Below, one piece after another: positions 8,686 through 30,445 of a DNA stretch of 64,000 nt (position 1 is the stretch's first letter; each line of letters opens with the position of its first letter). Made by a program: the position numbers and the translations under genes. Source of the stretch: Rubrivivax sp. (GTDB lineage: Bacteria; Pseudomonadota; Gammaproteobacteria; Burkholderiales; Burkholderiaceae_C); contig JAIXZR010000028.1 in the NCBI GenBank assembly GCA_027489455.1, positions 1 to 64,000 of the forward strand. The letters are read 5' to 3'. Below the pieces are notes generated by a model that did not search any database, had not been told where the DNA came from, and saw nothing but the letters and a program-made list of their open reading frames with translations.

Positions 8686-10557
<1,872 letters not shown>

Positions 10558-11280: not shown

Positions 11281-14200
11281 TTAGGCCACAACGGCTTCCC
11301 GCTCGAGCGTGACAACGTTCACCTCAGCACCGAACACTTGCCGGACTCGCGGCAGGAGGTGGTCGTGGTGGCTGAGGAAGAGCACCTGAGTCCTGGTCGA
11401 GAGCTCGCGAAGCGCCTCCAGGCCAGCAGTAGACCGCTCGTCATCGAAGTTGATGAAAAGGTCATCTGCAACGAAAGGCAGCGGCTTCGACTTTTCTAGA
11501 TGAAGTTCGAGGGCCGCAAGCCGCAGCGCCAAGTACAGCTGGTCCCGAGTTCCCTCGCTCATGCCAGCCACTTCCACCGGACGGCCGTCGACCCGCAGCG
11601 CAGAGAGGCTCAGTGGCGTCTTCTCATAGTCGACGAACAACTTGCCATACCGCCCCAAGGTCAGCTTGGCGAAAATGGCACCAGCCCGCGCAAGCATCGG
11701 CCCCTGCTTCTGCTCGCGGTAGCGGTCGATTGCCCATGTCAGTAGCGTGACGGCGGTCGCAACCTTGATGTATCGCTCAGAAGCCTCCGCCATGTCTGCC
11801 AGGGCCTCCTGCCGGCGGGACTCTGCGGCGGCGGCATCTTGGCCACCTGAGATGGCTTTCACCGCCTGCTCGGCCCGTACCCGCGCTTCTGCCAACTCCG
11901 TTAGATGCGGCTGCGTTGCCTCCAACGCGTCGGACGTGCTGGCCAACTCGGCGGAAAGTTGCTCCAGGTCGCAAGCGTCGACCTCGGCGACCACAGCGTC
12001 CAGGCCGAGACCATCCGAGTCCTGGGTGAGCAGTTGCCGTGATTGCTCGACACTTAGGTTCAGCGCCCGCCAAAGGTCGGAGCGCTCGACGAGAGGCGCG
12101 GCGTCATCCAGCTTGGCCACACCCGCAGCCGTCAGAAGCGGAGCGACCTTCGCCTCAATCTGCTCTACCGTCTGCTTCGCCTCTCGAAGCTGTCTTGCCG
12201 CCTTCTCCAACGACGCATCCGCGGCCTCGCGACGTTGCATGGCCGCCTTTGCGTCAGCCAGCCGCTCGGAGAGGCGGGCAGCCACTAGCCGGGGCTCCGC
12301 CCCGCTTAGATCGGGCGCCTCTACACGGCTGACAACATCTTGGGCCAGCGCGCGGAACTGCTCCAAGTCGGCTGCCATGGTGTCGATTCGGTCCTTCTTC
12401 GTCGCTGCCGCCTTTTCGAGGCTGGCGCGGACCACCTCAACTTTCTGAAGAGCTTGCTCGGCGTCGTCCACTGACTTGACAAAGTCGCTCAGCCGGCATG
12501 TGCTCAGCGCCTGCCGCCACTCCACCTCCCAGTCCTCGTAGGACGCCGCCGCGGATTCGGCTTTGGTCTTCAGGTCGTCAAGTGCAGTGTCTGCGGCCGC
12601 CACCTGCTCACGCAGCAGTTTGGCGCGCGCTGCGACTGTCTCAGTGCTTGAGATGAGCCGCTCGGCCTCGGCGACAACGGCGACGAGCGATGCTTCCGCT
12701 GGAAGCACAACGCCGACGGAGGTCATCTCGGCCCTGAGTCGTGCGGCGGCCGCCCCGGACGCGCTGGCCTCTTGCTCCAACTCTTCCTCCTTCTGCTCGG
12801 CCAAGGAGGCGGCCTGCCTGACCTTCTCACGGGTCGAAAACCAAGACTGGGCATCGCCCAAGTCCAAGTCAGCACAGCCGGAGGACTGGCATAGCGCGTT
12901 CCACTCGCGGTCGAACGAAACTAGAGCGTCTCGCTTTTCCGAGACGGCGCGCGTTCGCTGCTCAAGGTCGAGGTTCGCGCGCGCCAACCGCTGGCGAAGG
13001 CTCTGCAGCTCCGCTGCTTCTGTGGCGGAGCCAAGCTGTGCATCAGCAAGCTCGTCGGCCAAGTGAATGGCGGCATCGAGCGCGGCAGCGCCAACAGTGA
13101 GAGCAATCTCGCCGTCCTTGATGGCCCCCCACCGAGCGTCTCTGGTGCGACGCACATCGTCAACTTCTACGCTGGTGACGATGTGGCGGGCCTCGGAGTA
13201 CTGGGAGGCCGCAAGGCGCGACTCTTCAACCTCGTGATGTGCGTCGGCCTCCAAGCCAATCGCGGTGCCAAGCCCTGACTGCAGTCCCTGCCTTTCGCTG
13301 ACCAATGCAACCAGCCTTGCCGTCGATATCGGCGCCACCGCCTGTAGCGCTTCGAAATCCAGCACCGGCCGCGTCAACGAGCTCAGATGGCCGCGCAGCG
13401 CACGCTGAGCTGCCTCCAGCGCGTTACTCAACTGCAGCTGGGTCGATACTGTGTTCTTGTAGCCCTGCGCATCGGATAGCGCGGCGCGAAGCGACAGCGG
13501 GACGTCCGGCGCCGGGGTCTCCGCAAGCTCCGCCTTCGCGGTCTCAATGTCGGCTTGCTTCTTCGAAAGCGCCTGCTGCGCATCGGCCTTCGCTTGACGA
13601 AGCTTGCCATGCGAAACGACCAGCCGCCGGACCTCGCGGAGGCTCAGTGGCGTCGGCACCGCCATATCGGCGAATGAGGCGTCGTCGACCGACCACCCAA
13701 GCTCGAGGGCGGCAGCCTGAGCAAGCCGCAGGAATGCCCGCCGCTCGCCCCTCTGCGTTTCGATGTCCGCGTAGTGGTCACGGACGCGTTGGCCAAACGC
13801 GGTGAGCTCCTCAATGTGGTGTTGAGCATCGAGGACCTTTTGGTCGTAAGCGATGCCATCACGGAGCTGCGTGAAGTCCGCCGTGTCATCTTGTCGCTGA
13901 GACGCGGCAGTGCTGGCGACCGAGAGCTCGGACAGGCCTGCTTGAAGCGTCAATGCCGCGTCCGCCGGGAGCTCAAGGACAGCACCCAGAAGCTCAAGCT
14001 CCTTCTGGCACGCACGCATGGCCTGCACGGTGGGGGCGAGGCGCCGAATTCGCTCCAGTCGAGTACGCTGGGTCTGGAAAGCCTTCTTCTTTTCTGCCTC
14101 GGCAGCGATGGCTTGCACCACATCGTCAAGTTGGTCCTTGGTCTCTGACCAGCCCTTCGTGCGGACTGTGAGCTCCTTCAGGTCCTTGCATGCCTGCTCC

Positions 14201-14769
14201 CACCGGGCACACGCGGCGTAGTAAGCACGTCCAGCTGCAGCTCGCGGGGCCCACAACTTCTCTGCCTCGGCCGCCAAGGCATCCTTCACCTTGCCAAGCC
14301 CAGCGATACCGGCAGCGGACTGAAAGAGCACCTGGCTGACATCCTTGGAGGCGTCCAGGATGGTCTGACCGCCGCGAACCAGCTGACCATGGTCCAGCCC
14401 GAACATCTGCTCGAAGAAATCGCGGTCCGACGCACCGAGGAAGGCCGCAAGGCTATCGTCGGGTAGCACAGCGTCGCCAGGTGTGCGTAGCGTGTTCCTG
14501 TTGCCTTTGGTGCGATGGAACTTGAGCTCCGTCGCGCCGTCGACCAGGTGGGCACCTAGGCGCAGTTCGGGCTGAGGGTGCAGGAAGGCCATGGCCGCGC
14601 TTCGAGCCGGAAAGCCGTAGAGCAGCTCAGAGACCGCGCTGCGGACAGTCGACTTCCCCGCTTCGTTGGGCCCAACGATGAAGTGAAAGTCGTGCACAGC
14701 GGGCGGGAAGGCCGCATGCGCATCAGTGAACTTGCCGTAGCGGATGAGGTCGAGTTGGCGGATGCGCAT
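11281..14769 (-). CDS. SbcC/YhaN-like AAA ATPase with long coiled-coil
   Basis: MRIRQLDLIRYGKFTDAHAAFP...FIVGPNEAGKSTVRSAVSELLYGFPARS (Walker A); C-terminal LGRYGKLFVDYE...SEGTRDQLYLALRLAALE...LPFVADDLFINFDDERSTAGLEAL (signature/Walker B). Confidence 0.9.
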   Translation of the reverse strand: MRIRQLDLIRYGKFTDAHAAFPPAVHDFHFIVGPNEAGKSTVRSAVSELLYGFPARSAAMAFLHPQPELRLGAHLVDGATELKFHRTKGNRNTLRTPGDAVLPDDSLAAFLGASDRDFFEQMFGLDHGQLVRGGQTILDASKDVSQVLFQSAAGIAGLGKVKDALAAEAEKLWAPRAAAGRAYYAACARWEQACKDLKELTVRTKGWSETKDQLDDVVQAIAAEAEKKKAFQTQRTRLERIRRLAPTVQAMRACQKELELLGAVLELPADAALTLQAGLSELSVASTAASQRQDDTADFTQLRDGIAYDQKVLDAQHHIEELTAFGQRVRDHYADIETQRGERRAFLRLAQAAALELGWSVDDASFADMAVPTPLSLREVRRLVVSHGKLRQAKADAQQALSKKQADIETAKAELAETPAPDVPLSLRAALSDAQGYKNTVSTQLQLSNALEAAQRALRGHLSSLTRPVLDFEALQAVAPISTARLVALVSERQGLQSGLGTAIGLEADAHHEVEESRLAASQYSEARHIVTSVEVDDVRRTRDARWGAIKDGEIALTVGAAALDAAIHLADELADAQLGSATEAAELQSLRQRLARANLDLEQRTRAVSEKRDALVSFDREWNALCQSSGCADLDLGDAQSWFSTREKVRQAASLAEQKEEELEQEASASGAAAARLRAEMTSVGVVLPAEASLVAVVAEAERLISSTETVAARAKLLREQVAAADTALDDLKTKAESAAASYEDWEVEWRQALSTCRLSDFVKSVDDAEQALQKVEVVRASLEKAAATKKDRIDTMAADLEQFRALAQDVVSRVEAPDLSGAEPRLVAARLSERLADAKAAMQRREAADASLEKAARQLREAKQTVEQIEAKVAPLLTAAGVAKLDDAAPLVERSDLWRALNLSVEQSRQLLTQDSDGLGLDAVVAEVDACDLEQLSAELASTSDALEATQPHLTELAEARVRAEQAVKAISGGQDAAAAESRRQEALADMAEASERYIKVATAVTLLTWAIDRYREQKQGPMLARAGAIFAKLTLGRYGKLFVDYEKTPLSLSALRVDGRPVEVAGMSEGTRDQLYLALRLAALELHLEKSKPLPFVADDLFINFDDERSTAGLEALRELSTRTQVLFLSHHDHLLPRVRQVFGAEVNVVTLEREAVVA

Positions 14770-14771
14770 AC

Positions 14772-16025
14772 TTATTCGCCTTGCTGGAGGTGAGCCAGCA
14801 GGCCCGGGGACACGCTTTGGACAAGGTCCTGCAGTTGACCACTACGGATTTGCTCAATGAGCGGCACGAGGGGCTGCAAGTCCAACGGGGCTTTCGCGGC
14901 GAAGGGCGCCAGGCAGTCCTGTAGGTGCGAGTTGAAGTCGGGGTCTACAGCAGCGGCGGCCAAGATGTCCTGCAAGTCGGCAAACGCGTCCAGCCTCTCG
15001 TGTGCCTTGGCCGCGTCTACGAACGCCTCGGTTTCAAGCCTGACCTTCTCCAGCCACAGGCGCTCGTTTCCGATGGCAGCAATCTGGGCCAGGACCTCGC
15101 TGCGCAGCTGCGCCTCAAGCCCGAACAGTTGCCCGTGCGCCTTCGTGCGGCCGTGAACCGTCACGCGCACAGCGCGAGGAACTTGCCCGTCGTCCGCAAG
15201 GAGACTTTCCAAGCCACGCCCGATACCCCGGGTGACCTCAACTAGCGATTCACATGGGCTGACATCGACTCGAATGTGCTCCCACCGCAGCACGTCGATG
15301 AAGATGCGCTCGACGTTCGACGAGCCGCTGTCGTCTACCGAAACAAGCACCGCGCCGCGCCGCCCGCACTCGCGAACATGGCGACCTTGCAGATTGCCAG
15401 GAAAGACGATGGTGGACGGGCCGTTCCACTGCTGGAACTCATGCACGTGGCCGAGGGCCCAGTATTGGTAGCCCTTGGCGTAAAGCTGGTCGACCGAACA
15501 AGGCGCATACGATGCATGGGCCGCGTACCCCTCGAGCGCTGTGTGCAGCACGCCGATGTTGTAGTGGCCCGGAACCGCGGCCGGATAGTGCGCCGCCAGG
15601 TTGGCGGTGGTTTCCTTCTGCTTGAAGCTGTGGCCGTGAAGCGCCACCGACAGGCCCTCTATGCGAAACGTCTCGGGCTTGCTCGCAGAGAAGCATGAAA
15701 CGTTGTCAGGGAGGTCCAGCTTGCGGGTCATCTCGCTTTCCGCATCGTGGTTCCCGAACAGCAGGAACACTGGCACTCCCGCACGCTTGAGCCGGCCCAT
15801 CTCCTTGCAGAAGAAGATGCCCGTGTTGTAGTCGCGCCAAGACCCGTCATAGAGGTCGCCGGCGATGACCATGAAGTCGACGGCTTCTTCGATGGCACGG
15901 TCAACAAGTGCGGTGAAGGCGTCTCGGGTTGCGCCTCGAAGCTGGGCCGCTGGAGCGTCCGGATACGCAGACAGGCCGCTGAGGGGACTGTCGAGATGGA
16001 TGTCGGCTGCGTGGATGAACTTCAA
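14772..16025 (-). CDS. SbcD/YhaO-like DNA repair exonuclease (metallophosphoesterase)
   Basis: LKFIHAADIHLDSPLSGL, VIAGDLYDG, LFGNHDAES, LGHVHEFQQW; TTG start overlapping the sngC stop codon (TTGA); 2-nt gap to the SbcC-like gene. Confidence 0.88.
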   Translation of the reverse strand: MKFIHAADIHLDSPLSGLSAYPDAPAAQLRGATRDAFTALVDRAIEEAVDFMVIAGDLYDGSWRDYNTGIFFCKEMGRLKRAGVPVFLLFGNHDAESEMTRKLDLPDNVSCFSASKPETFRIEGLSVALHGHSFKQKETTANLAAHYPAAVPGHYNIGVLHTALEGYAAHASYAPCSVDQLYAKGYQYWALGHVHEFQQWNGPSTIVFPGNLQGRHVRECGRRGAVLVSVDDSGSSNVERIFIDVLRWEHIRVDVSPCESLVEVTRGIGRGLESLLADDGQVPRAVRVTVHGRTKAHGQLFGLEAQLRSEVLAQIAAIGNERLWLEKVRLETEAFVDAAKAHERLDAFADLQDILAAAAVDPDFNSHLQDCLAPFAAKAPLDLQPLVPLIEQIRSGQLQDLVQSVSPGLLAHLQQGE

Positions 16026-18310
16026 CGGTCTTCTCCCTCTGAGAGCTTCTTGTTTTGGGTCACGTCGACCGCCCGTGCCCATGCCAGGGCTTCGTCCAGG
16101 TTCAGATACAGACTGGCGTACGCTCGGCGCAGAAGTGGGTCGGGGAGGGTCCAGTCCCACTTTTCGCGCTGGAGGTTCTTGACCTCGGCCAAGAGGACAT
16201 CCAGTGGAGGCGATTCGTCGACGCCCGCATCCACAAGCGCGTCGACGATGTCGTCGGCGCTGTGAGCCCCCTTCATCACCTCAACACCCGGGCCGGCAGC
16301 GCTCGCCTTGAAGCCCCGGCGCTGCAACAGGCAAGCCAGCGCCTCGTTGGTCGCGTCGCCTAGCCAGGTGAGGAGCAGCGTCTCGCTTCCCTGGTCGACG
16401 ACGAACGCATCAGCGAGCCCGCGCTCGGCGTAGTTGGCCCGTGCCTCAGCCAGGAACCGCTTGGCAACCTCATCAAGGTACAGAGGGACCTCTGTCGACT
16501 CGAGCAGCTGGCGCATGCGCTGGCGGACACGGGTATGAACGCGCCCGGCGCCGCCGGAGAACAAAGGCGGTGTCCCGCCACCAGCACGAACCACGAAAAT
16601 GGTCTTCTGAGGTTCGTCGATGTCCTCGACGCGCCACGTCTTCCCTGCAAAGAGGATGCGCTGGCCCACGCTCAGCGCCTGCGACACCGGCAAGGTTCCA
16701 AGCGTGCGCCCGCCGGTGACGATGCGGAACTCCTCGTCGGCCGAGAACGCCGCGTAGAAGGTGTAGTGGTTTACGAACTTCTCGCCCACCCGACCGTGCA
16801 GCAGCGTGCCCGCTGAGTCCTGGGTCAGAAGCTCCTTCTGACCCAGGTGCCGCACGAGCTCAACGAATTCCTCCTTCGAGAGCCCCGCGAACGGAGTCGC
16901 CGGACCGCACAGCAGGCCGTAGAGCTGACCGATGGTCGCGCCGCCGTTCTGTGCGATGAACGACAGCATCTGCTGGACCAGGGTCGACAGGTGTGCGCCC
17001 TTGGACATCGGCGGCTCGAACCAACCCTCCAGCAGCAGCGAAATCATCGCCGTCATCCTCACGGTCCCGAGCCGCAGCTCGGTGTCCAGGGATGGCTTGC
17101 CACCCATAGCCTGCTCGACGCAGTAACCCCTCAGGATGGCCGGCTCGCCCTTGCGGCGGCCGGAGCGGCCCAGACGCTGACGCAGGCTGGCCACCGTGGG
17201 CGGCGGGCCAATCTGCGCCACGCTCTTGACGGCCCCGATGTCGATGCCAAGCTCCAGCGTGTTGGTGCAGATGGCCGACGCCGGCTGCTCCTTCCGCTTT
17301 AGAGCGGCCTCGGTCTCAGAGCGAATCTCTTTCGACAGGCTGCCATGGTGCGGCCAGAACTCGGCGGGCACCTGCTGGGCCTCGCAAAGCTTGTTCAGTA
17401 GGTTCGTGTACCGTTCGACTTCGCGGCGGGAGTTCGGGAAAACAAGGTTGTTGGACCCACGGAGGCCCTTGAACAGATGCGCGGCAATCTGCGCCGGTGT
17501 CACGGGCTCAGGCGGCTCCTCGGGCTCGAGATCCTTGAGCTGGTCGGGGTCTTCGACATCGAGGTTGGCACCAAGCGCCGCAACAGGGTCGGGCCTCACA
17601 ACCAAGGGCTCCTCGTAGCCCTTCACGAGAATCTTCAGCTCATTGCCGGAGGACTTCGACTCCACCATCGCGACTGCTGGCCCCTTGCCTGGACGCAGGA
17701 AGTCAGCCGCCAGGCTCATGTCACCCAGGGTTGCAGACAGGCCAATGCGCGGCACGGTCCGGCCGATGACCCGCTCGATGCGGTGCATCAACGACTGCAG
17801 CTGCTTGCCGCGCTCGGCGCCGATGAAAGCATGAAGCTCATCGACCACGAAGAACGTGAGCCGCTCAAACGCAGGCCCGATGGAGGTGCCGCGGTTGCAC
17901 AGCAGCGCTTCCAGCGACTCCGGCGTGATGAGGAGGACGCCTTGCCGCTTGGTCAGGAACCGCGTCTTGGTCGACGCCGAGATGTCGCCGTGCCATGGCC
18001 ACACCGGCACCTCGAGTTGCTCGCAGAGCCGGTCCAGCCGCCCGAACTGGTCGTTGATGAGCGCCTTTAGCGGGCTGATGTAGACGATGAGCCCAGGTGG
18101 GTCGGACTGCAGCAGGTGCGTCAGCGCAGGTAGGAAGGCTGCCTCTGTCTTCCCTGCCGCGGTAGCAGCCGCCACGATGACGTCGCGGTCGGCCTTGACT
18201 ATGAGCGGGATGGCCGCTTCCTGGGCGTCACGGAGCGACTCCCAGCCCTCGGCCCATATGAAGCGCTGGATGCGCTCATCGAGCAAGTGGAATGAGCTGG
18301 AGTCCGACAC
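16022..18310 (-). CDS. sngC: Lhr-like DEAD/DEAH-box helicase; candidate SngC of a Shango-like system
   Basis: AAATAAGKTEAAFLPAL (motif I), DELHAFIGAERG (II), GLSATLGD (III), RQRLGRSGRRKG (VI); adjacent to TerB-domain and P-loop ATPase genes. Confidence 0.8.
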   Translation of the reverse strand: MSDSSSFHLLDERIQRFIWAEGWESLRDAQEAAIPLIVKADRDVIVAAATAAGKTEAAFLPALTHLLQSDPPGLIVYISPLKALINDQFGRLDRLCEQLEVPVWPWHGDISASTKTRFLTKRQGVLLITPESLEALLCNRGTSIGPAFERLTFFVVDELHAFIGAERGKQLQSLMHRIERVIGRTVPRIGLSATLGDMSLAADFLRPGKGPAVAMVESKSSGNELKILVKGYEEPLVVRPDPVAALGANLDVEDPDQLKDLEPEEPPEPVTPAQIAAHLFKGLRGSNNLVFPNSRREVERYTNLLNKLCEAQQVPAEFWPHHGSLSKEIRSETEAALKRKEQPASAICTNTLELGIDIGAVKSVAQIGPPPTVASLRQRLGRSGRRKGEPAILRGYCVEQAMGGKPSLDTELRLGTVRMTAMISLLLEGWFEPPMSKGAHLSTLVQQMLSFIAQNGGATIGQLYGLLCGPATPFAGLSKEEFVELVRHLGQKELLTQDSAGTLLHGRVGEKFVNHYTFYAAFSADEEFRIVTGGRTLGTLPVSQALSVGQRILFAGKTWRVEDIDEPQKTIFVVRAGGGTPPLFSGGAGRVHTRVRQRMRQLLESTEVPLYLDEVAKRFLAEARANYAERGLADAFVVDQGSETLLLTWLGDATNEALACLLQRRGFKASAAGPGVEVMKGAHSADDIVDALVDAGVDESPPLDVLLAEVKNLQREKWDWTLPDPLLRRAYASLYLNLDEALAWARAVDVTQNKKLSEGEDR

Positions 18311-18315
18311 CGGTC

Positions 18316-19482
18316 CTACCTCGATGGCGCCCAGTTGCCCTGGTCATCGTAGTTGTAGCTTCGTAGCATCCCCGCGGCCTGCCAGATTTGGTCGAACAAA
18401 GGCCGAAGGGCTTGCTCCGCCGTGTCCTCGGAGCGCAGGAGGACATCCGGAACGACCAGCGTTGCCCGGTCGAAACGGCCCATGTTGTCGTCGAGGTTGA
18501 AACGCCACCTGTCCAACCCGAGCTCGGTCCTATCCGCTCCCAGCAGCGACCACATCGCAGCGACCTCTGTCGAGTAACCGAGGCGCGTGAGCTCAGCGCG
18601 GAACCTATCGACGAGCTGAATGATGTTCTGCTCGTAGTGAATACTGCCGAGCGAAGTTCGCTGTTCAGCGCCGTGCCATGTCTCGACGTGCACAGTTTCG
18701 AAGTAGCCGTTGCGGAAGAACTGGCTATACCCGTGCGTGCCCTCGGCTCCAGCGTTTCGAACAGCCAGGGCTCCGTCGATGTTGATGCGCTGATTTGCTC
18801 CTCCGGTCGCCAGCACCGGCAGAACCTGGCGATTCATGTACGGAACAGGGTCCACGTTCATCAGGCCAAGCGCTGCTTGTGTCGGTATGAGGTGCAACAC
18901 CTGGAGCGCCCCTGGAGCAAGGCGCTCGGGAGCGCGGCCAGACATCAGCGCGCCGAGTCGGTCGGTTCGGAAGTCGCGAACCTTCTGGGCCTGCGATTCC
19001 GTCCGGACGAACATGGCCCTGATTTCAGGGATATCCAACTGGCGCTTGCGAGCGCCTTCTCGGATGAAGAAGTGCTGGTTCGTCTTGACCCGGTGTGGGC
19101 CAGCCCAGCTTTGAGGTACGCGGACTACGAAGACGGAACCCCCAGCAACCGCAACAGGATGAACCTGCAATCCCGGAAGGCGCGGCTCAATGGAACTCGC
19201 AAGAACGTCGAGCATGCGTCGTGCTTCCACGTCGGAGTTTCCAACGAACGGCACGATTGCTCCGGCGCAGCCGTCCGCGTCCTCAGCTATCCCGTAAACC
19301 AGGTCGCCACCTCCGCTGTTACCAAGGGCGGATGCGTCTGCAGCGAACTCGTGCCGCGCACCGCTGTCGGTGCGCGGCGTCTCTTGCTTGAACTCAAGGT
19401 GCGGCCCCTCTTGCTCGTGCTCGGTGAGAAGCTTCAGAAGGTCAGACTCCGTAGTGGCGAGCAGGTTTGTTGGTAGCGGCAT
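18316..19482 (-). CDS. AlbA_2 / Schlafen AAA_4-type putative DNA/ATP-binding protein
   Basis: LLTEHEQEGPHLEFKQETP...EFAADASALGNSGGGDLVYGIAED; ...HFFIREGARKRQLDIPEIRAMF is typical of AlbA_2 domains. Confidence 0.75.
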   Translation of the reverse strand: MPLPTNLLATTESDLLKLLTEHEQEGPHLEFKQETPRTDSGARHEFAADASALGNSGGGDLVYGIAEDADGCAGAIVPFVGNSDVEARRMLDVLASSIEPRLPGLQVHPVAVAGGSVFVVRVPQSWAGPHRVKTNQHFFIREGARKRQLDIPEIRAMFVRTESQAQKVRDFRTDRLGALMSGRAPERLAPGALQVLHLIPTQAALGLMNVDPVPYMNRQVLPVLATGGANQRINIDGALAVRNAGAEGTHGYSQFFRNGYFETVHVETWHGAEQRTSLGSIHYEQNIIQLVDRFRAELTRLGYSTEVAAMWSLLGADRTELGLDRWRFNLDDNMGRFDRATLVVPDVLLRSEDTAEQALRPLFDQIWQAAGMLRSYNYDDQGNWAPSR

Positions 19483-19503
19483 TTTTGCGCTCAGCCTCTT
19501 GAG

Positions 19504-20808
19504 TTACATCTTGAACGACGAGAACTCGTCGCCGTCTTCGGCCTCGACCGCGTGGTCGCCGGTACCACCTGTGTCGGCCGAAACCTCGATGCCGCCGAGC
19601 AACTCCTGCCATGCGGAGCCCTGGTTCTGTTCAAGCACAGCAAGAAGGTTGATGAAGGCCGTGATGGTGGTGCGTGGCGTGCGGAAGTAGGTGTCGCCGA
19701 TGCGCTTGGAGCAATGCTCCATGAAGCTCATCACCCCGTTGTCAGGGAGCAGGTGCTTGGCCGGGTCGCCGAAGGCGTAGACGCCGCGAATCTTCTGCAG
19801 CAGGACGTAGAAGTCCTCCGGCGTCAGGCTGGACAGCCGCACCACTGGCCCGCTGAAGTCCACCAGGCCGTTCGTCGCGAAGGTGTTCTGCGCCAGCCGA
19901 CTCTGGAGCGCCGGATAGCTGTAGAGGCCCCGGCGCGTGTCGAGCAGGAACTCCGGCGTGCCGCCGAGCACGAAACCCAGTCCGACTGCGGTCCCCTGCA
20001 GCGAATCGTTCAGGATGCGGAGAATCTGCTCGTAGTTCGAGTTCCGCGCCTGCGTGTTCGCGAGCTTGTACAGATTCACCAGCTCGTCTAGGCTCACCAG
20101 TAGCCCGGAGAAGCCGGCAAGGCGGATGAATCGCGCCATCAGCTTCAACTGGTCGTATACCGCTGCGTCGTCGACAATGGCCCGCACGCCCAGCGCCTGC
20201 CTGGCGTCTGTCTTGGTCGTGAACTCACCGCGCAGCCAGCGTACTGCGTCCGATTTGAGCTGCTCGTTGCCTTCCTCGAAGCCGCGGCAGTAGGCCGCGA
20301 TGACGTCGGCGAAGTCGTAGCCATTCACCAACTCCGTCAGCTGGTCGAGCTTCTGACGAAGCACCGCCTCAGTGGGTTGGCCCGAGGCCTTCGCTTCGGT
20401 CTTGGCCGTGGCGATGAACTTCTCGACGATGCCGCTCAGCGCACCGCCATCCGGCTTTGTGCGCGTCGAGAGGTTGCGCATGAGCTCGGCGTACAGCGAC
20501 CGGGCCTGGCCACCGCTGGCGTGGAGGCGCCGGTCCGGGTTCAGGTCGGCGCTGGCAACGACCAGCTTCTTCTCCATGCCCACCGCGCGCACGAGGTTCA
20601 GGAAGAACGTCTTGCCAGCGCCGTACTCGCCGATGACCACGCGGAAGGCGGACCCGCCGTCCGCGATGCGTTCGATGTCGGTCACGAGCGTCTCGATTTC
20701 CCGCGTGCGGCCGACCTGCACCAGATGCTGGCCGGTGCGGGGTACGACGCCGGCGCGCAGCGACTGGATGACCGCGTCACGGTCCTTGGGGCGAATCGGG
20801 GTCGTCAT
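19504..20808 (-). CDS. sngB: BrxD/DUF2791-like P-loop ATPase; candidate SngB
   Basis: VGRTREIETLVTDIERIADGGSAFRVVIGEYGAGKTFFLNLVRAVGMEKKLVVASADLNPDRRLHA; LLVSLDELVNLYK Walker B. Confidence 0.8.
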   Translation of the reverse strand: MTTPIRPKDRDAVIQSLRAGVVPRTGQHLVQVGRTREIETLVTDIERIADGGSAFRVVIGEYGAGKTFFLNLVRAVGMEKKLVVASADLNPDRRLHASGGQARSLYAELMRNLSTRTKPDGGALSGIVEKFIATAKTEAKASGQPTEAVLRQKLDQLTELVNGYDFADVIAAYCRGFEEGNEQLKSDAVRWLRGEFTTKTDARQALGVRAIVDDAAVYDQLKLMARFIRLAGFSGLLVSLDELVNLYKLANTQARNSNYEQILRILNDSLQGTAVGLGFVLGGTPEFLLDTRRGLYSYPALQSRLAQNTFATNGLVDFSGPVVRLSSLTPEDFYVLLQKIRGVYAFGDPAKHLLPDNGVMSFMEHCSKRIGDTYFRTPRTTITAFINLLAVLEQNQGSAWQELLGGIEVSADTGGTGDHAVEAEDGDEFSSFKM

Positions 20809-23276
20809 GCTTCAACTTTCTCCAGGATTTCGGCGTTCACCGTCACGGGGTCGTCGCCCTCGAACAGCGCCATGTCGTGTGTATCGAACGCGGCCTCGTT
20901 AATGTGCTCGAGCGCGCCGTCGAGCATCAGGTCGAGGTCGGCCGCCACATCCAGCAGCTCTTCGCGGCTCCACTCTGGGCGCGACAGCAACATTCGGGCA
21001 AGCGCGGTGTGGGCCTCGTCCAGACCCATGAGGCCCTTGGGTGTTTCAGCTGCTTCTGCCTCGACTTCGGCCTCAGACGGCTCAGCAACTGCCGCGGCGG
21101 GCTCCTCGATCTCGGTGAAGATGTTGGCCAGCAGCGCCGACACTTTCTCGGTGTCCTTCTGGAGGGCGGCGATGCGTGCCGGGTCGAGCTTGAAGCCCGA
21201 CTCCTCGACCTTGGCGGCGGCGGCCGCGGCGGTCGGCTTTGTGCCGGCTGCGACTGCGTGAACATCGGAGAAGACCTTCTTTGAGTCGACGCCCAGGGCC
21301 TTGTAGACCTTCTCGAGCATCTTGACCTCGGCCGGTGACACCTCACCGTCCGACTGCGCGACCGTGGCCATGAAGGCGGCGATGGTTTCCTTGACAGTCA
21401 AGTCGAGCGGCTCGAACTTTTTCTTCAGCGCGGTCAGCGACGCCGGCGCCTGCATCAGCAGCCTCAGGTGCGCCAGAAGGCGGCGCGTCTGGCTGGGTGT
21501 CAGGTGCTTCCAGGACAGCACCGTCTCACGCAGGTGGCCCATCTCCTTGATGCCGAACTCTCCGTCGGAGGTCGCCACGGCCGAGGCCAGCTGCAACGTC
21601 AGCGCGGCGGCCAGGTACGGCCCGTTCGCACGGGACAGCTGCTCTGAGGGCGGGAGGGCGAAGAGGACGACCTTCTCCTCGGACTTGGGCGGCTTCGCTC
21701 CGCTGAGAACGTCGGGCTCGAAGCCCACGTTGGCCGACTCCAGCGTGCGGGCCAGCGATAGCGTCTTGTCCTTGGCGAATGCCGTCTTGGCGCCTAGGGC
21801 AGTCAGCAAGTCCTGGAACGACATTGAGACCATGCCCTCGCCCATGCGTGCCTTGAGCGCCTGCAGGGCCCTCTGGGGCTCCTCCGGCCACAGCGGTGCC
21901 GGGAGCTGCAGCAGGGCCTCCAGCGTGGCCCTGGAGTCCGCGTTCTTTCCGACCGCGCGGCTGAACGACTCCAGAGGCTTCGTGGCGGCCTCGACGACCT
22001 CCTGCAGCTTCTTGGTCGGCGCAGTCAGCACCGTGACGTCAGGCGTGTCCTTGAAGGTCAGCTTGAGTTCCTGGTAGCCCCGGAAGCCTGACGACGCGGG
22101 TCGATAGACCAGCTTGAGCTTCGTCCGGTTCCGCGGCAGCGCCATGCCGCGGCCGCACAGTTCTGAGTACTTCTGTGCGAAGAGCTGCTCGAACTGCTCG
22201 GGGCAGCGTGTCGCGGGTGTACGCAGGTATATGTTGGGGTCAAGCTTCGCCCAGGCAAGCGCCAGATGCGCCGGCACCTGGGCACCGTCCACAGCTGCCT
22301 GCCCAAGGGCGAGGCGGATGTAGAGCGGCAGCTCGAACGTCTTCGGAAGCGCAGGGACAGGCCGCTCGTACAGCTTGGAGGGATGAGAGGCCAGCGAAAC
22401 CCAGTCCAGGAGCTCACCTGCGTAGCGCCTGAACGAGTTGGACTTCTCGCCGTAGATGTCGAGCAGTCGGCGTAACTCCTCAGCAATGATGGGCCAATCA
22501 GCCTGAGCTGCCTCGTCCTTGGCGCCGTCGAGGATGGCCCGGCGCTCCAGTCCATAGAAGAACAGGAAGACGTAGCCGATGTCCGCGCGGGGGTCTTGCC
22601 GCCCGCCGGCAAGCCACTTCAGGTAGGCCCGTCGCGCGCTTGGCGAAATCTCCGAGTAGCTGGGCCAGTAGCCCATGTCGCGCTCGGTGTACTCGGCTCG
22701 GGCCGCAACCGTCTTCGACGGGTCGATGAGGCACGGGTCGTTGTCGCCGAGCGGTGTTTTCAGCGAGTTGCCAACGTAGACCATTCCGCCAGGGATGGTC
22801 AGCCCAGCGATGCTCACCGTCTCACCGGGAGGCAGCCACCGACCGGCGCCGTAACCCTTCGGTGCCGCCGACACCTTGAAGTTGGAGACGAACGGGGCCG
22901 GGGCCGGCGCCGCCGGCAATGGATTGCGGTACGTGGGCGGAGTTGGAGCAACACTGACTGGCTCGTCGTCCGGGACGAACCGTTGTGTTGGCTTGGGCGC
23001 CGGCGGGGGCAAACTGACCCTCGCGGTCGCCTCCAGGGAGCGAGCTACGGCGGGCGCGTCGCGGGAGGCCACCCTGGAAGCGCGCCTTTGCGGCTCACGC
23101 TCCTCGACGACCACGGCCTTCTTGGACTGACGGTACAGGTAGATGGCGACACCGACGGCTGCGATGACGCCGATGCCAATCCAGACCTCCTGAGGGATGC
23201 CGGCGAGCAGCGCAATCGCGCCAACGACCAGCACCGCGACAACGCCACCTGGCCCCGATTTCTTCCTTCTCGCCAT
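20805..23276 (-). CDS. sngA: TerB_N/TerB_C domain protein with N-terminal membrane segment; candidate SngA
   Basis: N-terminal VVAVLVVGAIALLAGIPQEVWIGIGVIAAVGVAIYLY hydrophobic segment; WLPPGETVSIAGLTIPGGMVYVGNSL (TerB_N); TIAAFMATVAQSDGEVSPAEVKMLEKVYKALGV (TerB); ATGA overlap with sngB. Confidence 0.82.
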   Translation of the reverse strand: MARRKKSGPGGVVAVLVVGAIALLAGIPQEVWIGIGVIAAVGVAIYLYRQSKKAVVVEEREPQRRASRVASRDAPAVARSLEATARVSLPPPAPKPTQRFVPDDEPVSVAPTPPTYRNPLPAAPAPAPFVSNFKVSAAPKGYGAGRWLPPGETVSIAGLTIPGGMVYVGNSLKTPLGDNDPCLIDPSKTVAARAEYTERDMGYWPSYSEISPSARRAYLKWLAGGRQDPRADIGYVFLFFYGLERRAILDGAKDEAAQADWPIIAEELRRLLDIYGEKSNSFRRYAGELLDWVSLASHPSKLYERPVPALPKTFELPLYIRLALGQAAVDGAQVPAHLALAWAKLDPNIYLRTPATRCPEQFEQLFAQKYSELCGRGMALPRNRTKLKLVYRPASSGFRGYQELKLTFKDTPDVTVLTAPTKKLQEVVEAATKPLESFSRAVGKNADSRATLEALLQLPAPLWPEEPQRALQALKARMGEGMVSMSFQDLLTALGAKTAFAKDKTLSLARTLESANVGFEPDVLSGAKPPKSEEKVVLFALPPSEQLSRANGPYLAAALTLQLASAVATSDGEFGIKEMGHLRETVLSWKHLTPSQTRRLLAHLRLLMQAPASLTALKKKFEPLDLTVKETIAAFMATVAQSDGEVSPAEVKMLEKVYKALGVDSKKVFSDVHAVAAGTKPTAAAAAAKVEESGFKLDPARIAALQKDTEKVSALLANIFTEIEEPAAAVAEPSEAEVEAEAAETPKGLMGLDEAHTALARMLLSRPEWSREELLDVAADLDLMLDGALEHINEAAFDTHDMALFEGDDPVTVNAEILEKVEA

Positions 23277-23298
23277 TTATCTTGTTCCCCCTGTCAGT

Positions 23299-24441
23299 TC
23301 ACAACGTGAACAATTCCTGGTCAACATAGCGCCCGGTCTGCGCAAGCGCCGGAATCAGTTCCGCGTCAGCGTACGCACAACCTGAGCTGACCACAGGCCG
23401 CTGACCCTGCTTTTCGGCCGCCTCTGGCGAGTGACCCCCACCCGCCAGCAACGATGCCAGCATCGGAGCGTAGCCGGGGACCCACGCGGTCAGGTCAGGG
23501 AACGTCGACCTCACTGCCGCAAGAATTCGCATGCCGGCGTAGTCCAGGTCGCCCCAGAAGTGGACTGGCGTCGAGCCGCGCCCAAACAGCCAAGCCTCGA
23601 AGGCGACCTTCAGGTCTCCTCCTAGGGCGCCCTCGCCAGCGTAGAAGAGCGAGCAGCCCGCCGGGTTCCGCAGCCGTTGGGCGCTCCCCTTAAACCCTGA
23701 CGCGTAGACCAGTGCGAGCCCGGAGAACGCATGGGATGATGAGCGCAAGGCCTGCTCGAAGCTCATCAGGTTCTCGATGAAGAGCACGCCCCGGTAACCG
23801 GCCAGCGGCAGGAAGACCTGAAGTTGGATGGGCGACTCCGGGAAGGGGCACTCATCGACCCCCAGGATGGCTGCCACCAGGCCTTGGCGCTTGTCGAGCA
23901 CCTTCGACATGCCCCAGAAGAGCTGCGTCGAGACCTCGCGCAACAGCATCGGCCTGTCTGCAAGGGACGGCAGTTGGTTGAGTCGCTGCACGACTTCGGA
24001 CATCGAGTAGTTCGGCATGTCGATGCAGTAGTCGCCGACAGCTCGCTTGACCTCTTGTGAAGCAGCCAGACCCACGTTGACCGCTTCTCGCCACCGCTCG
24101 ACGGAACTTTTGACGCGTTCGGGTCGCCCAGTTGCCAGTCGGACAGCGGCCTCGTCGAGCACTGTCACTCGGGGGCTACGGTCGTAGCCAGACCGTGCCT
24201 TGACTGCCCCTTCCGGCTTGACGCTGAGCCAGCCCCAGTTGCACATCTCACCGACGTGCTCCCAGAGGTCCTCCTTGCGCGACTCGAGGGGCGCCCTGTA
24301 AAGTGCAGGCCACGTCTTCTCGGCGAGCGTCACAGACTGGGCCTTGGTGCCACGGCTGTCGGCTGCGTCCAGCCTGTCGACAAGCAGGCCCAGCAGTTGC
24401 CGAACCTCCGTTGATTCGAGCCACAGGGGGCGTGACGTCAC
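23299..24441 (-). CDS. jetD: Wadjet JetD (DUF3322/DUF2220, Toprim-like nuclease)
   Basis: VTSRPLWLESTEVRQLLGLLVDRLD; LFIENLMSFEQAL; VHFWGDLDYAGMRILAAVRSTFP Toprim-like motif; GTG start overlaps jetC stop (GTGA), so the ORF-track start at 24588 is too far upstream. Confidence 0.9.
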   Translation of the reverse strand: MTSRPLWLESTEVRQLLGLLVDRLDAADSRGTKAQSVTLAEKTWPALYRAPLESRKEDLWEHVGEMCNWGWLSVKPEGAVKARSGYDRSPRVTVLDEAAVRLATGRPERVKSSVERWREAVNVGLAASQEVKRAVGDYCIDMPNYSMSEVVQRLNQLPSLADRPMLLREVSTQLFWGMSKVLDKRQGLVAAILGVDECPFPESPIQLQVFLPLAGYRGVLFIENLMSFEQALRSSSHAFSGLALVYASGFKGSAQRLRNPAGCSLFYAGEGALGGDLKVAFEAWLFGRGSTPVHFWGDLDYAGMRILAAVRSTFPDLTAWVPGYAPMLASLLAGGGHSPEAAEKQGQRPVVSSGCAYADAELIPALAQTGRYVDQELFTL

Positions 24442-27400: not shown

Positions 27401-28088
27401 GGTCGTGAACTGAGCCGATGGGCTTGTAGGCAATAGACTGGCCCCAGGCCTTAGCCGCATTCTGGGTCTCGTCCCAGGTGACCGAAGTGCGACCGCGGAA
27501 CCTGCCGTACAGCGCGCAGAGGTAATCGCGCTTGGTGCCGTCGTAGGAGGTGACCTTCCGGTACCGGGCCCTTAGCCGCTTGACGATTTCGTCGACGGAC
27601 ACCCATTCGTTGCTCTCAGCGTCCCTCAAGAAGTCGTTAATAGTCAGGGCTTCGTCGTCGACGATGATGAGTTCCAAGCGCTCCAGCTTGGCGCCACGGC
27701 GCTCGCCGGTGCCGTCGACACGGGCAGATGCAGCGACCAAGGCTGTAAATGGCTTGGCCGAGGTCTCGGAGGGGCCTGGACGGAACACGGCGGCGACGTA
27801 GCCTTGCGCACCGTCGGGCCTCGAGAAGTTGCTGTACTCGGCGCCGCAAACGAACGACTCCAGCGTGCGCTTGGACTTGCCGCGGCGCTGGTTGGCCTGG
27901 ACTTCTTCCTGGCCCGGGTTGTAATTCACGATGCCCTGGTAGGACGCGGTCATCACGGTCTGCAGGGCGTCCAGCATGGTCGACTTGCCGGCGCCTGTCG
28001 GGCCAGTCAAGAGAGTCATGTTGCTGAAGTCGTATTCGCCGTACGGCAGCTGGCCCCAGTTGGCCAGGATGAGTTTGTCGAGTTTCAT
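24438..28088 (-). CDS. jetC: Wadjet JetC (SbcC/MukB-like SMC ATPase)
   Basis: MKLDKLILANWGQLPYGEYDFSNMTLLTGPTGAGKSTMLDALQTVMTASYQGIVNYNPGQEE; C-terminal GTGSGGQLETPAYIVRAA...LLVSDESFSKMDETRARAVLRYL. Confidence 0.95.
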   Translation of the reverse strand: MKLDKLILANWGQLPYGEYDFSNMTLLTGPTGAGKSTMLDALQTVMTASYQGIVNYNPGQEEVQANQRRGKSKRTLESFVCGAEYSNFSRPDGAQGYVAAVFRPGPSETSAKPFTALVAASARVDGTGERRGAKLERLELIIVDDEALTINDFLRDAESNEWVSVDEIVKRLRARYRKVTSYDGTKRDYLCALYGRFRGRTSVTWDETQNAAKAWGQSIAYKPIGSVHDLVRDDILEFDGKQLQEGISRISDLMKQVTNLREEGARIAATVARLSELKTAIVSTTSAFEEQVQYDLLAAKMHLRDDESRIDQERKKIAQDTDIAERNERLKKTQGALRHSADLSRIGLKVKLGGIAAHGAKERLEEKLKVSTQVAKDTLDALMKGLLAAGRLENTARLLISKVIPEQFPTLKAAVEALASAFAATELERLAALHDAVLDASRDEALVAAKLLQLVSAFEGVNVGLAEVHAALVGPTESVSTAIATEAATLDARIESEGRAVKDLADRKQRLAAGASNYPRETGLAVDRIREQLPEASVQVLCDLVEPRSEDWQPAIEGYLDGARFNLIVKPDWEARTIDYLQSVGSRAKVIQGKHCLDRADPSRVPRDSIIHELHTEHPIAKAYLIEQFGAVIKVENSQQLRTTARGLTKDGKGSGSRTMFVGEKRELVFGRAARERALKETTAQLEAAEAALSRLRGLKKLLVDQRSTLGQLREPSFNAQPLHAAATDIDHCRRDLDQLDLTEVLELEAALKDIEEQIADYDIQIAAAAKAITLADERTGKSEELIRSIQSKRGDRLRDLEDQIRRLKQLCEANPERTYTVLAEQVEEQLASGTMTSVDVNNQRDRLKSLPAGRLGEVRELLTDYNAKAKSEERFQVALPHLHDDASFDPCYGPLAVLGRAVSTLYGELEGIGLYNNRNEVEQAERSFHDVFTKQFCVEIKTKVDDGVRTLRQLNAELQNLKFGTDRFSIDWSKWEPEFEDYYSFFKAVTELADSPETVDLFGDTELSEKHIEVRKRIVGLLLDKDQERAGRELLRIADYRNYRRYEIWNESDSGGRIALSTWGTGSGGQLETPAYIVRAAVVTNRMKLFDKSSSLKLLVSDESFSKMDETRARAVLRYLRDGLGLQVVSAMPTRNAGGLRPEFDREYSYSRAGVDKNGELDFVLECDERLFKPDRMRELWDAQRAQAREQARLEFEEKELAEAMEPAAQAGAAQ

Positions 28089-28756
28089 TCTTCGGTCCCT
28101 GCGACCGTGGCTTCTTGTTCGATGACGCCGTCAGCGTCTAGGGCAGCCGTCAGGGCGTCGTTCGACACAACGCCAAGGATGGTCGGCCGAATGGCGAGCA
28201 GTGCGTCCTCGTCCGCGATGGAAAAGCCTGCGGCGTAGCTCAGGATTCGGTGCCGCTTGAGCTCAGCCAGCAAGTGCATCTTGTCGGTCGAGCTGGACGG
28301 CAACAGGCGCTTGAGCTGCGTCTGCATCGTCACCGCCAGCTCTTCGAAACTGATGAGGGCCTCACCCTGCGGCTGGATGTCGCCGTTGTTGAGCTTGTTT
28401 TGATAGAGGAAGCGCAACGCCAGGGCGGCCGCCACGAAGTCAGGCGAGACCCGCGCACGGACCGACGGAACGGCCTCAAGCGTGTCCTCGGGCATGCCGT
28501 CAACCACCGCGCCCGGCGCGTATAGCCGGTAGTACTGGTTGGTGGAGTCGTGGTGCAGCCGGAAGCCCGCCACGTCGAAGTAGTCCTCCAGCAAGGTCTC
28601 GATGCGGCGGGCGTCGTCGTACAGCAACTGCTCCGTTCGGTCTTCGTCGCGTACGACGACGCCGTAGGACATGAGGCGCAGGACGATCTCTCGAAAGCGC
28701 TCAGCCTTCAGGTTGGCGACCGTCAGCTGTTCGTTGACAAGGGATGAAATGCTCAT
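28085..28756 (-). CDS. jetB: Wadjet JetB (DUF4194)
   Basis: LRLMSYGVVVRDEDRTEQLLYDDARRIETLLEDYFDVAGFRLHHDSTNQYYRLYAPG; position between jetA and jetC with 4-nt overlaps. Confidence 0.92.
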   Translation of the reverse strand: MSISSLVNEQLTVANLKAERFREIVLRLMSYGVVVRDEDRTEQLLYDDARRIETLLEDYFDVAGFRLHHDSTNQYYRLYAPGAVVDGMPEDTLEAVPSVRARVSPDFVAAALALRFLYQNKLNNGDIQPQGEALISFEELAVTMQTQLKRLLPSSSTDKMHLLAELKRHRILSYAAGFSIADEDALLAIRPTILGVVSNDALTAALDADGVIEQEATVAGTEE

Positions 28757-30180
28757 TTCTTCAGGTCGATTTCGTAGTCATTGCCGCTGTAGGCGGGGTT
28801 GTCCAGGCGAGCGGGCAGCTTGCGTACGGAGAGGTCGCCGCCTGCGCTGCGAGCGGCCTCGACGGCCTGCATGGCGCGAATGACGTCACGGGCGCTCTCC
28901 GTGGGCAGCGCTGAAACGCGGATGGGATGCCGGAACAGGCGCAGGTCCGTTCGCAGCTTCTCGGCCACCAGCTCGTTGGGGATGGAAAACGCTTCCGACT
29001 CCGCGCGTGCCATCGCAGCGGCCAGGCGCTCTTGCCGGCTGGCTCGGGGGCGGACCGTGACGGTGACCGCCTTCCGGCGCTGCGTGGCCGTCCGCAGCTT
29101 GAAGCTGGCGGGGTCGAGCAGCCGAACCTCGGCCGTGGTGAGCTGGTCGCCGATGCGGGAGAGAAAGCGGTCCTGCGCGTCCTTGGGCGACTCGGACACC
29201 TTCTGGATGGCCGCGAGGTAGGCGTGGCGAGTCTGCCCCGAGCGCAGCATCATCGACTGCAGCGCCAGGCCATTGACGCGCTTCATGTACGTCTCCATCG
29301 CCTTGACGAAGCCCGGCTGCTTCGACTCGCAGGCTGCGTCGACGATGTCTTCGATGCGGCTGAGCAGCCAGTCGTAGACCGAATTCCCGGCGTGCTCCTT
29401 GGCGGCCCAGTGCGCGATGTCGTGCAGTTGCTCGTCCATGCGCTTGAACTTGGCGTCAGGCACCGCCCGAAGCCTCTCGAGGTTCTGCTGGATAGCCTGG
29501 CGGTTGAGCATCGCGTTGTCGGACGTCAACTGCTTCGAGTACTCCCGCTGGAACCGGTCCAGAAAATCGACGAACTCGCCCCACTGCGTGTGTACCGAGG
29601 CGTTTTGCATCAGGTGGCGGACGAGACCCTGGAAGTAGTCGATGCCCTCAGTCAGGTCTTCAATGACCTTCTCGGCGTACTCGTAGGCGTCCACGATGTC
29701 GTGCGCGTCACCACGACCGGAGAGGGCGGCATCCAGGGCGTTCCGGCAGCCGCGCATGTTTCGTTGCCGGCTGCGGCTGGGGCGGTCCAGCGCCCAAAGG
29801 GCCTCCGAGAACAGCTTGCCAGCACGCGAGAAGCGGAAGGCTGTGACCAGGCCATGCCTGTCTGCAAACTGCTCCAGCCATCCATCGGCCAGCAGGGTGC
29901 GGATGAGAAGGCTTGTCAGTTGTTGCGGGTCGTCGGCTTCTGGGGCGTTGAACTCGTCCTGCTCAGCATCCGGCGCCGCCTGGTCAAGGTGCTCACGCAC
30001 GACCGGAAAGAGCAGTTCACGCAGCGCATCACGGGTGAGGTTGTGTGCATAGTCCGCAGCTGGGCCGTGAAGGCGTTCATAGAGCGCCCTCAGGCAGGCC
30101 ACGACCAGCTCACGGCGGGAGCTGTTCAGAGGCCGGAAGAACTTGCAGCGTTCGTTCTCGAAGAAGGCGGCCGCGGTCAT
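28753..30180 (-). CDS. jetA: Wadjet JetA
   Basis: MTAAAFFENERCKFFRPLNSSRRELVVACLRALYERLHGPAADYAHNLTRDALRELLFPVV; first gene of a jetABCD-order cluster. Confidence 0.92.
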   Translation of the reverse strand: MTAAAFFENERCKFFRPLNSSRRELVVACLRALYERLHGPAADYAHNLTRDALRELLFPVVREHLDQAAPDAEQDEFNAPEADDPQQLTSLLIRTLLADGWLEQFADRHGLVTAFRFSRAGKLFSEALWALDRPSRSRQRNMRGCRNALDAALSGRGDAHDIVDAYEYAEKVIEDLTEGIDYFQGLVRHLMQNASVHTQWGEFVDFLDRFQREYSKQLTSDNAMLNRQAIQQNLERLRAVPDAKFKRMDEQLHDIAHWAAKEHAGNSVYDWLLSRIEDIVDAACESKQPGFVKAMETYMKRVNGLALQSMMLRSGQTRHAYLAAIQKVSESPKDAQDRFLSRIGDQLTTAEVRLLDPASFKLRTATQRRKAVTVTVRPRASRQERLAAAMARAESEAFSIPNELVAEKLRTDLRLFRHPIRVSALPTESARDVIRAMQAVEAARSAGGDLSVRKLPARLDNPAYSGNDYEIDLKK

Positions 30181-30374
30181 CGGGCGCCTTTCTTCGCCTC
30201 AGGCGCTGGGTCGCCAGGTTCTACCTGAAGCTTCTTGGCATACAGCCTGACCATCACTTCGAACATGTTGGTCAGGCTGCGGTGCTCTTCGGCGGCGCAG
30301 CGCTCCCAGAGGTCGCGGACCTCGGGGGTCATCTTTAGTGTCGTCGCGGAGGTCTTGGATTTGGGGCGTGCCAT
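30177..30374 (-). CDS. Small ribbon-helix-helix-like protein heading the operon (putative autoregulator)
   Basis: 65 aa MARPKSKTSATTLKMTPEVRDLWERCAAEEHRSLTNMFEVMVRLYAKKLQ; beta strand + two helices pattern; ATGA overlap with jetA. Confidence 0.7.
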   Translation of the reverse strand: MARPKSKTSATTLKMTPEVRDLWERCAAEEHRSLTNMFEVMVRLYAKKLQVEPGDPAPEAKKGAR

Positions 30375-30379
30375 CGGTT

Positions 30380-30445
30380 CAGAGGTCCTTTCAGCGGGAT
30401 AGCGAAGCGCCTTATATACCTAACGGATATACGTTATCAGGGTGA
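30380..30445 (-). promoter_or_regulatory. Putative promoter/operator of the RHH-jet-sng operon
   Basis: Upstream of 30374 on the minus strand: TATATAAG -10-like element and dyad TAACG-gatata-CGTTA (30421-30436). Confidence 0.45.

What the first reader, a model, noticed from the sequence alone, without database searches (positions are those of the whole stretch)
11281..30374. Composite 11-gene defence operon: RHH + Wadjet + Shango-like + AlbA_2 + SbcCD-like genes in one transcription unit
All genes are on the minus strand with junctions that leave almost no room for internal promoters. RHH/jetA, jetA/jetB, jetB/jetC and jetC/jetD overlap by 4 nt (ATGA/GTGA). jetD to sngA is 22 nt; sngA/sngB overlap by 4 nt; sngB to AlbA_2 is 21 nt; AlbA_2 to sngC is 5 nt. 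The sngC stop overlaps a TTG start; SbcD-like to SbcC-like is 2 nt. Wadjet (anti-plasmid/DNA-circle cleavage) and Shango (TerB protein + ATPase + helicase) are described as separate systems. Here they look translationally coupled, suggesting either coordinated stacking or a genuinely integrated system in which TerB/ATPase/helicase/SbcCD modules assist or extend Wadjet. I know of no described system with this composition, but I cannot search.
Basis: partly seen in the sequence, partly recalled or inferred. Interest (0 to 1): 0.88.

Follow-up and report, generated by a model that had tools for sequence, protein, structure and literature searches.

The report
Transposon-borne stacked bacterial defence operon
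An unusually long, tightly packed bacterial operon joins two known defence systems (Wadjet, which cuts plasmids, and Shango, which blocks phages) with two extra nuclease-type modules; it rides on a Tn7-like jumping element, and related pairings elsewhere look like repeated stacking of separate defences rather than one new machine.

Summary
Eleven minus-strand genes (30374 to 11281) join with gaps or overlaps of -4 to +22 nt: RHH, JetABCD (Wadjet I), SngA, SngB, a Schlafen-type AlbA_2 protein, SngC and a YhaO/YhaN (SbcD/SbcC-like) pair. All genes and catalytic motifs checked are intact, and no internal promoter-like site was found.

It is cargo of a Tn7-like transposon just downstream of glmS, with TnsA, TnsB, TnsC, TnsD, a second TniQ, and three TnsB-type end sites. 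Two other genomes carry the same element family at glmS; one has a different Wadjet plus CBASS as cargo.

Shango-Wadjet adjacency recurs in three other loci (Rhizobium MAG, Sideroxydans MAG, one genome of the window's class), plus a probable remnant in Variovorax. The order is reversed and the trees fit separate assembly. The Rhizobium case also carries YhaNO and is also Tn7-like cargo. Most relatives of each block stand alone, and AlbA_2 inside Shango was seen only here.

Verdict: co-transcribed, RHH-led stacking of separable defence modules, not an obligate new system. Functional cooperation is possible but untested.

The parts
30177..30374 (-). RHH-type small protein (65 aa), likely autoregulator and first gene of the operon
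   Evidence: ORF read; relatives of 47-66% directly before jetA in L003, L015, L019; no Pfam hit
30375..30460 (-). Leader/promoter-operator region with imperfect inverted repeat GATAACGTATATCCGTTAGGTATAT, resembling the site before RHH in L019 (GATAACGTATTTCCAGTAGAAATAT)
   Evidence: suggestive only
28753..30180 (-). JetA (Wadjet type I kleisin)
   Evidence: PDLC00462 1.6e-229, PF18982
28085..28756 (-). JetB (DUF4194, KITE)
   Evidence: PDLC00470 1.8e-95, PF13835
24438..28088 (-). JetC (SMC ATPase); Walker A 29, SGGQ 1068, DE 1103-1104
   Evidence: PDLC00507 E=0; motifs
23299..24441 (-). JetD (Toprim nuclease); IEN and GDLDYAG motifs intact
   Evidence: PDLC00527 1.5e-144; motifs
20805..23276 (-). 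SngA (TerB_N/TerB/TerB_C) with hydrophobic N-terminus (putative membrane anchor)
   Evidence: PDLC03958, PF13208/PF15615/PF05099, hydropathy
19504..20808 (-). SngB (BrxC/BrxD-like ATPase), Walker A GEYGAGKT
   Evidence: PDLC03959 1.2e-181, PF10923, motif
18316..19482 (-). AlbA_2/Schlafen-type protein inserted between sngB and sngC; E25-x4-E30 and NSGGGDLVYG motif
   Evidence: PF04326 1.8e-13; motifs
16022..18310 (-). SngC (SF2 helicase, BrxHI-like)
   Evidence: PDLC03960 1.8e-270
14772..16025 (-). YhaO/SbcD-like metallophosphoesterase, TTG start, all motifs intact
   Evidence: PF00149, Mre11 structures, 60-65% relatives
11281..14769 (-). YhaN/SbcC/Rad50-like ATPase (GPNEAGKST, SGGQ 974, DD 1102-1103)
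8686..10557 (+). glmS, attachment gene of Tn7-like elements
   Evidence: NF001484 824 bits, TIGR01135
10574..10646 (+). glmS-proximal transposon end: candidate TGT terminus and three ~22-bp TnsB-type sites at 20-bp spacing
   Evidence: same sites after glmS in L103 and L100
33824..35611 (+). TnsD (target selector)
   Evidence: PF15978 3.2e-49, TniQ 1.8e-10
35984..37387 (+). second TniQ-family protein
   Evidence: PF06527 1.5e-14
37403..38722 (-). TnsC
   Evidence: Tn7 TnsC structure 7mbw, 3.7e-18
38676..41048 (-). TnsB
   Evidence: Tn7 TnsB structure 7pik, 5.6e-29
41036..42022 (-). TnsA-like
   Evidence: PF08722 1.3e-5, just below its cut-off; 51% to the TnsA-position protein of the Polaromonas element

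Best explanation
This is a polycistronic defence cargo of a Tn7-like transposon inserted at attTn7, downstream of glmS. One RHH-controlled promoter probably drives a Wadjet type I system, a Shango system carrying an inserted Schlafen-type AlbA_2 protein, and a YhaO/YhaN (SbcD/SbcC-like) nuclease pair. Most likely the modules work as separate layers. JetABCD linearises small circular DNA. SngABC blocks incoming phage by a membrane-linked ATPase/helicase route. AlbA_2 is a probable RNase back-up. YhaO/YhaN trims or degrades DNA ends and structures. Shown here: gene identities, intact motifs, junctions, transposon context and recurrent Shango-Wadjet pairing. Inferred: a single transcript, RHH repression, and every biochemical step.
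For: Junctions and gene identities. Tn7-like machinery and glmS with TnsB-type sites 28 bp after the glmS stop, conserved in two other glmS-linked elements. The same element family in a Polaromonas MAG carries a different Wadjet plus a CBASS cyclase, so the cargo is swappable. Pairings elsewhere have another order: L020 SngABC-JetABCD with convergent YhaNO, in a Tn7-like element; L038 SngABC-JetABCD beside an integrase and a topoisomerase; L064 SngABC with another Wadjet I subfamily. Trees put the window Shango beside stand-alone L054 (support 0.939) and the window Wadjet inside a clade of stand-alone Wadjets (support 1.0). Close stand-alone Shango and Wadjet loci exist. YhaO/YhaN follows BREX, a type III R-M-like operon and a methyltransferase elsewhere. 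Literature: Tn7-like elements carry defence cargo, with JetD in 34 transposons (PMC8649781); BREX operons recruit back-up nucleases including Schlafen RNases (PMC12839542).
Against: Six 4-nt overlaps and very short gaps across module borders suggest tight co-expression, more than loose clustering. Repeated Shango-Wadjet pairing could reflect real cooperation. The distal transposon end and target duplication were not found. No expression data were available.
Confidence: 0.72

Rival explanations
1. Integrated system: Wadjet, Shango and YhaO/YhaN act as one pathway. JetABCD opens circular DNA, the SngC helicase and YhaO/YhaN (Mre11-Rad50-like) process the new ends, SngA/SngB scaffold at the membrane, and AlbA_2 kills or stalls the cell if this fails.
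For: Continuous operon with 4-nt overlaps. Shango-Wadjet pairing recurs with unlike subfamilies, and the Rhizobium locus adds YhaNO next to the same two modules. [quoted passage not shown]
Against: Gene order is not conserved. The closest relatives of each block stand alone. In the phylum sample, genomes with both are about as frequent as random pairing predicts (2 against about 1.3). AlbA_2 is absent from the other Shango loci examined.
Confidence: 0.15
2. Passive accumulation: defence genes piled up in a transposon hot spot by chance insertions, and their close spacing is just genome compaction, with no shared regulation or function.
For: The Tn7-like element family carries quite different defence cargo in Polaromonas. 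AlbA_2 relatives lie beside integrases and Tni genes, and so look like independent mobile cargo. YhaO/YhaN pairs often stand alone on plasmids.
Against: Ten consecutive same-strand junctions between -4 and +22 nt with intact reading frames are hard to get without selection for co-expression. No promoter-like site was found between modules.
Confidence: 0.1
3. A BREX-like system, because SngB and SngC resemble BrxD and BrxHI.
For: PF10923 BrxC_BrxD 3e-152; BrxD 2.3e-46 and BrxHI 7.7e-115 as second-best PADLOC hits.
Against: No PglZ, PglX/BrxX or BrxC/PglY in the operon. SngB scores 154 against NCBIfam's BrxD cut-off of 350, while the SngB and SngC models score far higher.
Confidence: 0.02

Closest known systems
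Wadjet type I (JetABCD)
   Same: All four genes in canonical order, PADLOC JetA1-D1 models, SMC and Toprim motifs intact
   Different: Led by an RHH gene and continued directly by Shango on the same strand
Shango (SngABC; Johnson 2023, PMC10250203; also reported in E. coli, as that paper states)
   Same: SngA TerB protein, SngB ATPase, SngC helicase, strong model matches
   Different: A Schlafen-type AlbA_2 gene is inserted between sngB and sngC, not seen in the other Shango loci examined; the operon continues into YhaO/YhaN
Tn7-like transposons with defence cargo (Benler 2021, PMC8649781)
   Same: TnsA-D, TniQ, glmS insertion, TnsB-type end sites, defence cargo
   Different: This particular cargo combination did not turn up in the main-text passages searched
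BREX with auxiliary nucleases (Rakesh and Krishnan 2026, PMC12839542)
   Same: BrxD/BrxHI-like ATPase-helicase pair plus a Schlafen-type back-up RNase candidate inside the operon
   Different: No PglZ, PglX or BrxC; the AlbA_2 here shows no HATPase match, unlike L030
YhaO/YhaN, SbcCD, Mre11-Rad50
   Same: Mre11-like phosphoesterase plus Rad50-like ATPase as adjacent genes
   Different: Plasmid/transposon-borne branch found behind BREX, R-M or alone; below the NCBIfam cut-offs for SbcD and Rad50

Membership tests
Wadjet type I | JetA, JetB, JetC, JetD genes together in order | tested here: met
Wadjet type I | SMC ATPase motifs (Walker A, signature, Walker B) and JetD Toprim acidic residues | tested here: met
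Wadjet type I | Cleaves circular plasmid DNA / lowers plasmid transformation | not testable with these tools
   needs experiment
Shango | sngA, sngB, sngC all present and intact | tested here: met
Shango | Three contiguous genes (usual arrangement) | tested here: not met
   AlbA_2 gene lies between sngB and sngC; the other Shango loci examined show no AlbA_2 hit. It is therefore called a Shango variant
Shango | Anti-phage activity | not testable with these tools
   needs experiment
Tn7-like transposon | TnsA, TnsB, TnsC and a TnsD/TniQ selector | tested here: met
Tn7-like transposon | Insertion just downstream of glmS with TnsB-type end repeats | tested here: met
Tn7-like transposon | Second end and 5-bp target duplication | tested here: inconclusive
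   not found
Schlafen/AlbA_2 RNase | AlbA_2 fold with acidic active-site residues | tested here: inconclusive
   PF04326 match and E25/E30 motif; structure model failed, pLDDT 31.5
BREX | PglZ plus PglX/BrxX and BrxC core | tested here: not met
   none among the eleven genes
YhaO/YhaN (SbcCD-like) pair | Mre11-type phosphoesterase motifs plus an adjacent Rad50-type ATPase | tested here: met

The most novel reading that the evidence does not exclude
Shango, Wadjet and YhaO/YhaN form a recurrent functional partnership in which Wadjet creates DNA ends that the Shango helicase/ATPase and the Mre11-Rad50-like pair then process, with a Schlafen-type RNase as fail-safe: a multi-step plasmid and phage clearance pathway assembled repeatedly in mobile elements.
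Probability: 0.15. Interest if true: 0.82.

Novelty: new variant of a known kind. Interest (0 to 1): 0.5.

Why it matters
Wadjet and Shango are treated as separate systems. Recurrent direct adjacency, here within one operon and at least twice as Tn7-like cargo, makes it directly testable whether anti-plasmid and anti-phage modules are co-selected or cooperate. It also gives a natural case of a Schlafen-type gene inserted into Shango, and points to YhaO/YhaN as a portable accessory attached to different defence operons. The Tn7-like setting gives a concrete route by which such stacks move.

Tried and rejected
BREX membership was rejected because the core genes are missing. Viral-contig scans with JetC and AlbA_2 alignments found no relatives. 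Rfam and tRNA scans were empty. The distal transposon end was sought by exact k-mers, fuzzy motif and PWM and not found; secG, the gene next to the glmS-linked remnant in G1121, lies on another contig here, so the right chromosomal flank could not be placed. The AlbA_2 structure prediction was unusable (pLDDT 31.5). PDB sequence search gave nothing for AlbA_2, JetC or JetD. One region request exceeded the length limit and one family scan used wrong coordinates. Literature searches returned no description of this composition.

Full report
OBSERVATION. The eleven genes and all ten junctions are as described. PADLOC and Pfam give Wadjet type I JetABCD, SngABC, an AlbA_2/Schlafen protein and an Mre11-like phosphoesterase followed by a Rad50/YhaN-like ATPase. 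Catalytic motifs are intact throughout: JetC Walker A/signature/Walker B, the JetD Toprim motifs, SngB Walker A, SngC DELH, the YhaO metal-binding motifs and YhaN GPNEAGKST/SGGQ. Start sites fit relatives. No sigma-70-like site was found in 10500-30480 on either strand (0 against 1.5 expected), and terminator-like hits are at chance level. This is weak evidence for one transcript.

SETTING. The operon is cargo. glmS ends at 10557. From 10574 a candidate TGT end is followed by three ~22-bp TnsB-type sites at 20-bp spacing. Beyond the operon lie TnsD (33824-35611), a second TniQ (35984-37387), TnsC, TnsB and TnsA (37403-42022), of which TnsB and TnsC match Tn7 structures. Two further genomes hold the same family at glmS. 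In a Polaromonas MAG (L103/L047/L104) TnsA/B/C/D are 44-51% identical and the same ATTAAAGTCGTAAACA sites lie about 30 bp after the glmS stop; its cargo is a different Wadjet type I plus a CBASS cyclase. G1121 keeps only the sites and a TnsB remnant. The distal end was not found, so the element's full length is open; the GC drop across about 10-48 kb fits an acquired island.

RECURRENCE. A genome-wide scan with JetC found 35 loci. Counting plasmids, 14 relatives outside the window carry JetD. Two of them have Shango directly next door: L020 (Rhizobium MAG) and L038 (Sideroxydans MAG), both SngABC then JetABCD. L013 (Variovorax JS1663) keeps a 55-residue SngC C-terminal match just before jetA, read as a remnant. 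From the Shango side, 20 loci outside the window came from random genome samples; one, L064, has a Wadjet of another subfamily 1.3 kb downstream. Several of these 20 contigs are short, so absence of a neighbour is not always fully tested. L020 also carries YhaN/YhaO convergent to jetD, and its neighbours are TnsA, TnsB, TnsC and TniQ: a second Tn7-like case. L038 lies beside an integrase and a topoisomerase, so the pairing is not confined to Tn7-like elements.

INDEPENDENCE. In concatenated trees the window's Wadjet falls in a clade with stand-alone Variovorax/Rubrivivax/Paraburkholderia Wadjets, and its Shango is sister to stand-alone L054; L038's Shango is sister to stand-alone L056 and its Wadjet to stand-alone L024. 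With the order reversed in the window, this favours at least three assemblies (window, L020/L038, L064); L020 and L038 could share one.

BACKGROUND. In the phylum sample of 399 genomes, DUF4194 (JetB) passes the cut-off in 51 and Shango occurs in 11, own genome included. Excluding it, two genomes hold both, close to the ~1.3 expected, and in neither are they adjacent (different contigs, or >500 kb apart). Adjacency by random placement would be very rare (about 0.01 expected in 20 loci), but defence genes cluster, so I do not claim a p-value. The fair reading is recurrent but minority pairing.

ACCESSORY GENES. YhaO/YhaN relatives (YhaO 60-65%, YhaN about 40%) follow BREX in two Methylomonas plasmids and a type III R-M-like set in Methylotuvimicrobium; a more distant pair lies between a methyltransferase and OLD/UvrD-type genes in Sphingobium; elsewhere they stand alone. 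It behaves as a portable pair. The AlbA_2 protein has only distant full-length relatives (about 30%), near integrases or Tni genes. It shows the E-x4-E and GG motifs of Schlafen-type domains, but activity is inferred. Inserted RNase candidates are known in BREX operons (PMC12839542).

FUNCTION. Wadjet's cutting of small circular DNA is established for homologues (PMC10586767) and Shango's anti-phage effect likewise (PMC10250203). For this locus both are inferred from homology. RHH repression is inferred from its first position and a loosely conserved inverted repeat shared with L019.

VERDICT. Real, intact and unusual in composition, best read as a co-expressed defence stack in a Tn7-like element. 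The pieces are known kinds; the combination, the AlbA_2 insertion and the repeated Shango-Wadjet pairing are the new parts.

Noticed in passing
window 33824-42022 and 10574-10646: Tn7-like transposition genes with two TniQ-family proteins, inserted at glmS; distal end unresolved.
   Followed up: yes
L103/L047/L104 (Polaromonas MAG, G1158:C72): Sister Tn7-like element at glmS carrying a different Wadjet type I, a CBASS cyclase and a PHP/AAA protein.
   Followed up: partly
L100/L101 (G1121): glmS followed by the same end sites and a decayed TnsB, a remnant of the same element family.
   Followed up: partly
L059 (own genome, contig C35, 4896-9850): Second YhaO/YhaN pair in the same genome (58%/37-39%); the first search of the YhaN-like gene reported one in-frame TGA.
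   Followed up: no
L078, L081, L079, L083: YhaO/YhaN pair as neighbour of BREX, type III R-M-like and methyltransferase/OLD/UvrD genes: a portable accessory pair.
   Followed up: partly
L021, L022, L026, L027, L028, L029, L031, L032, L033, L035, L036, L037: JetABC homologues of the same clade with no JetD detected nearby, possibly MksBEF-like condensins rather than Wadjet.
   Followed up: no
window 20805-23276 and L007, L020, L038, L054, L056, L066: SngA has a strongly hydrophobic N-terminus in this Shango clade, suggesting membrane anchoring; not uniform across Shango.
   Followed up: partly
window 46869-58833: Metallo-beta-lactamase-fold protein, tyrosine integrase and a CusBA-type metal efflux operon beyond the transposon; possibly a second island.
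   Followed up: no
window 32908-33540: ORF ending in an EVKSK-containing stretch that looks like a truncated nuclease, between the operon and TnsD.
   Followed up: no
L096/L097 (Variovorax JS1663): Wadjet with SngC remnant lies near a TniQ/TniB-type transposition module, a UvrD-like helicase and a PD-(D/E)XK-like protein.
   Followed up: partly
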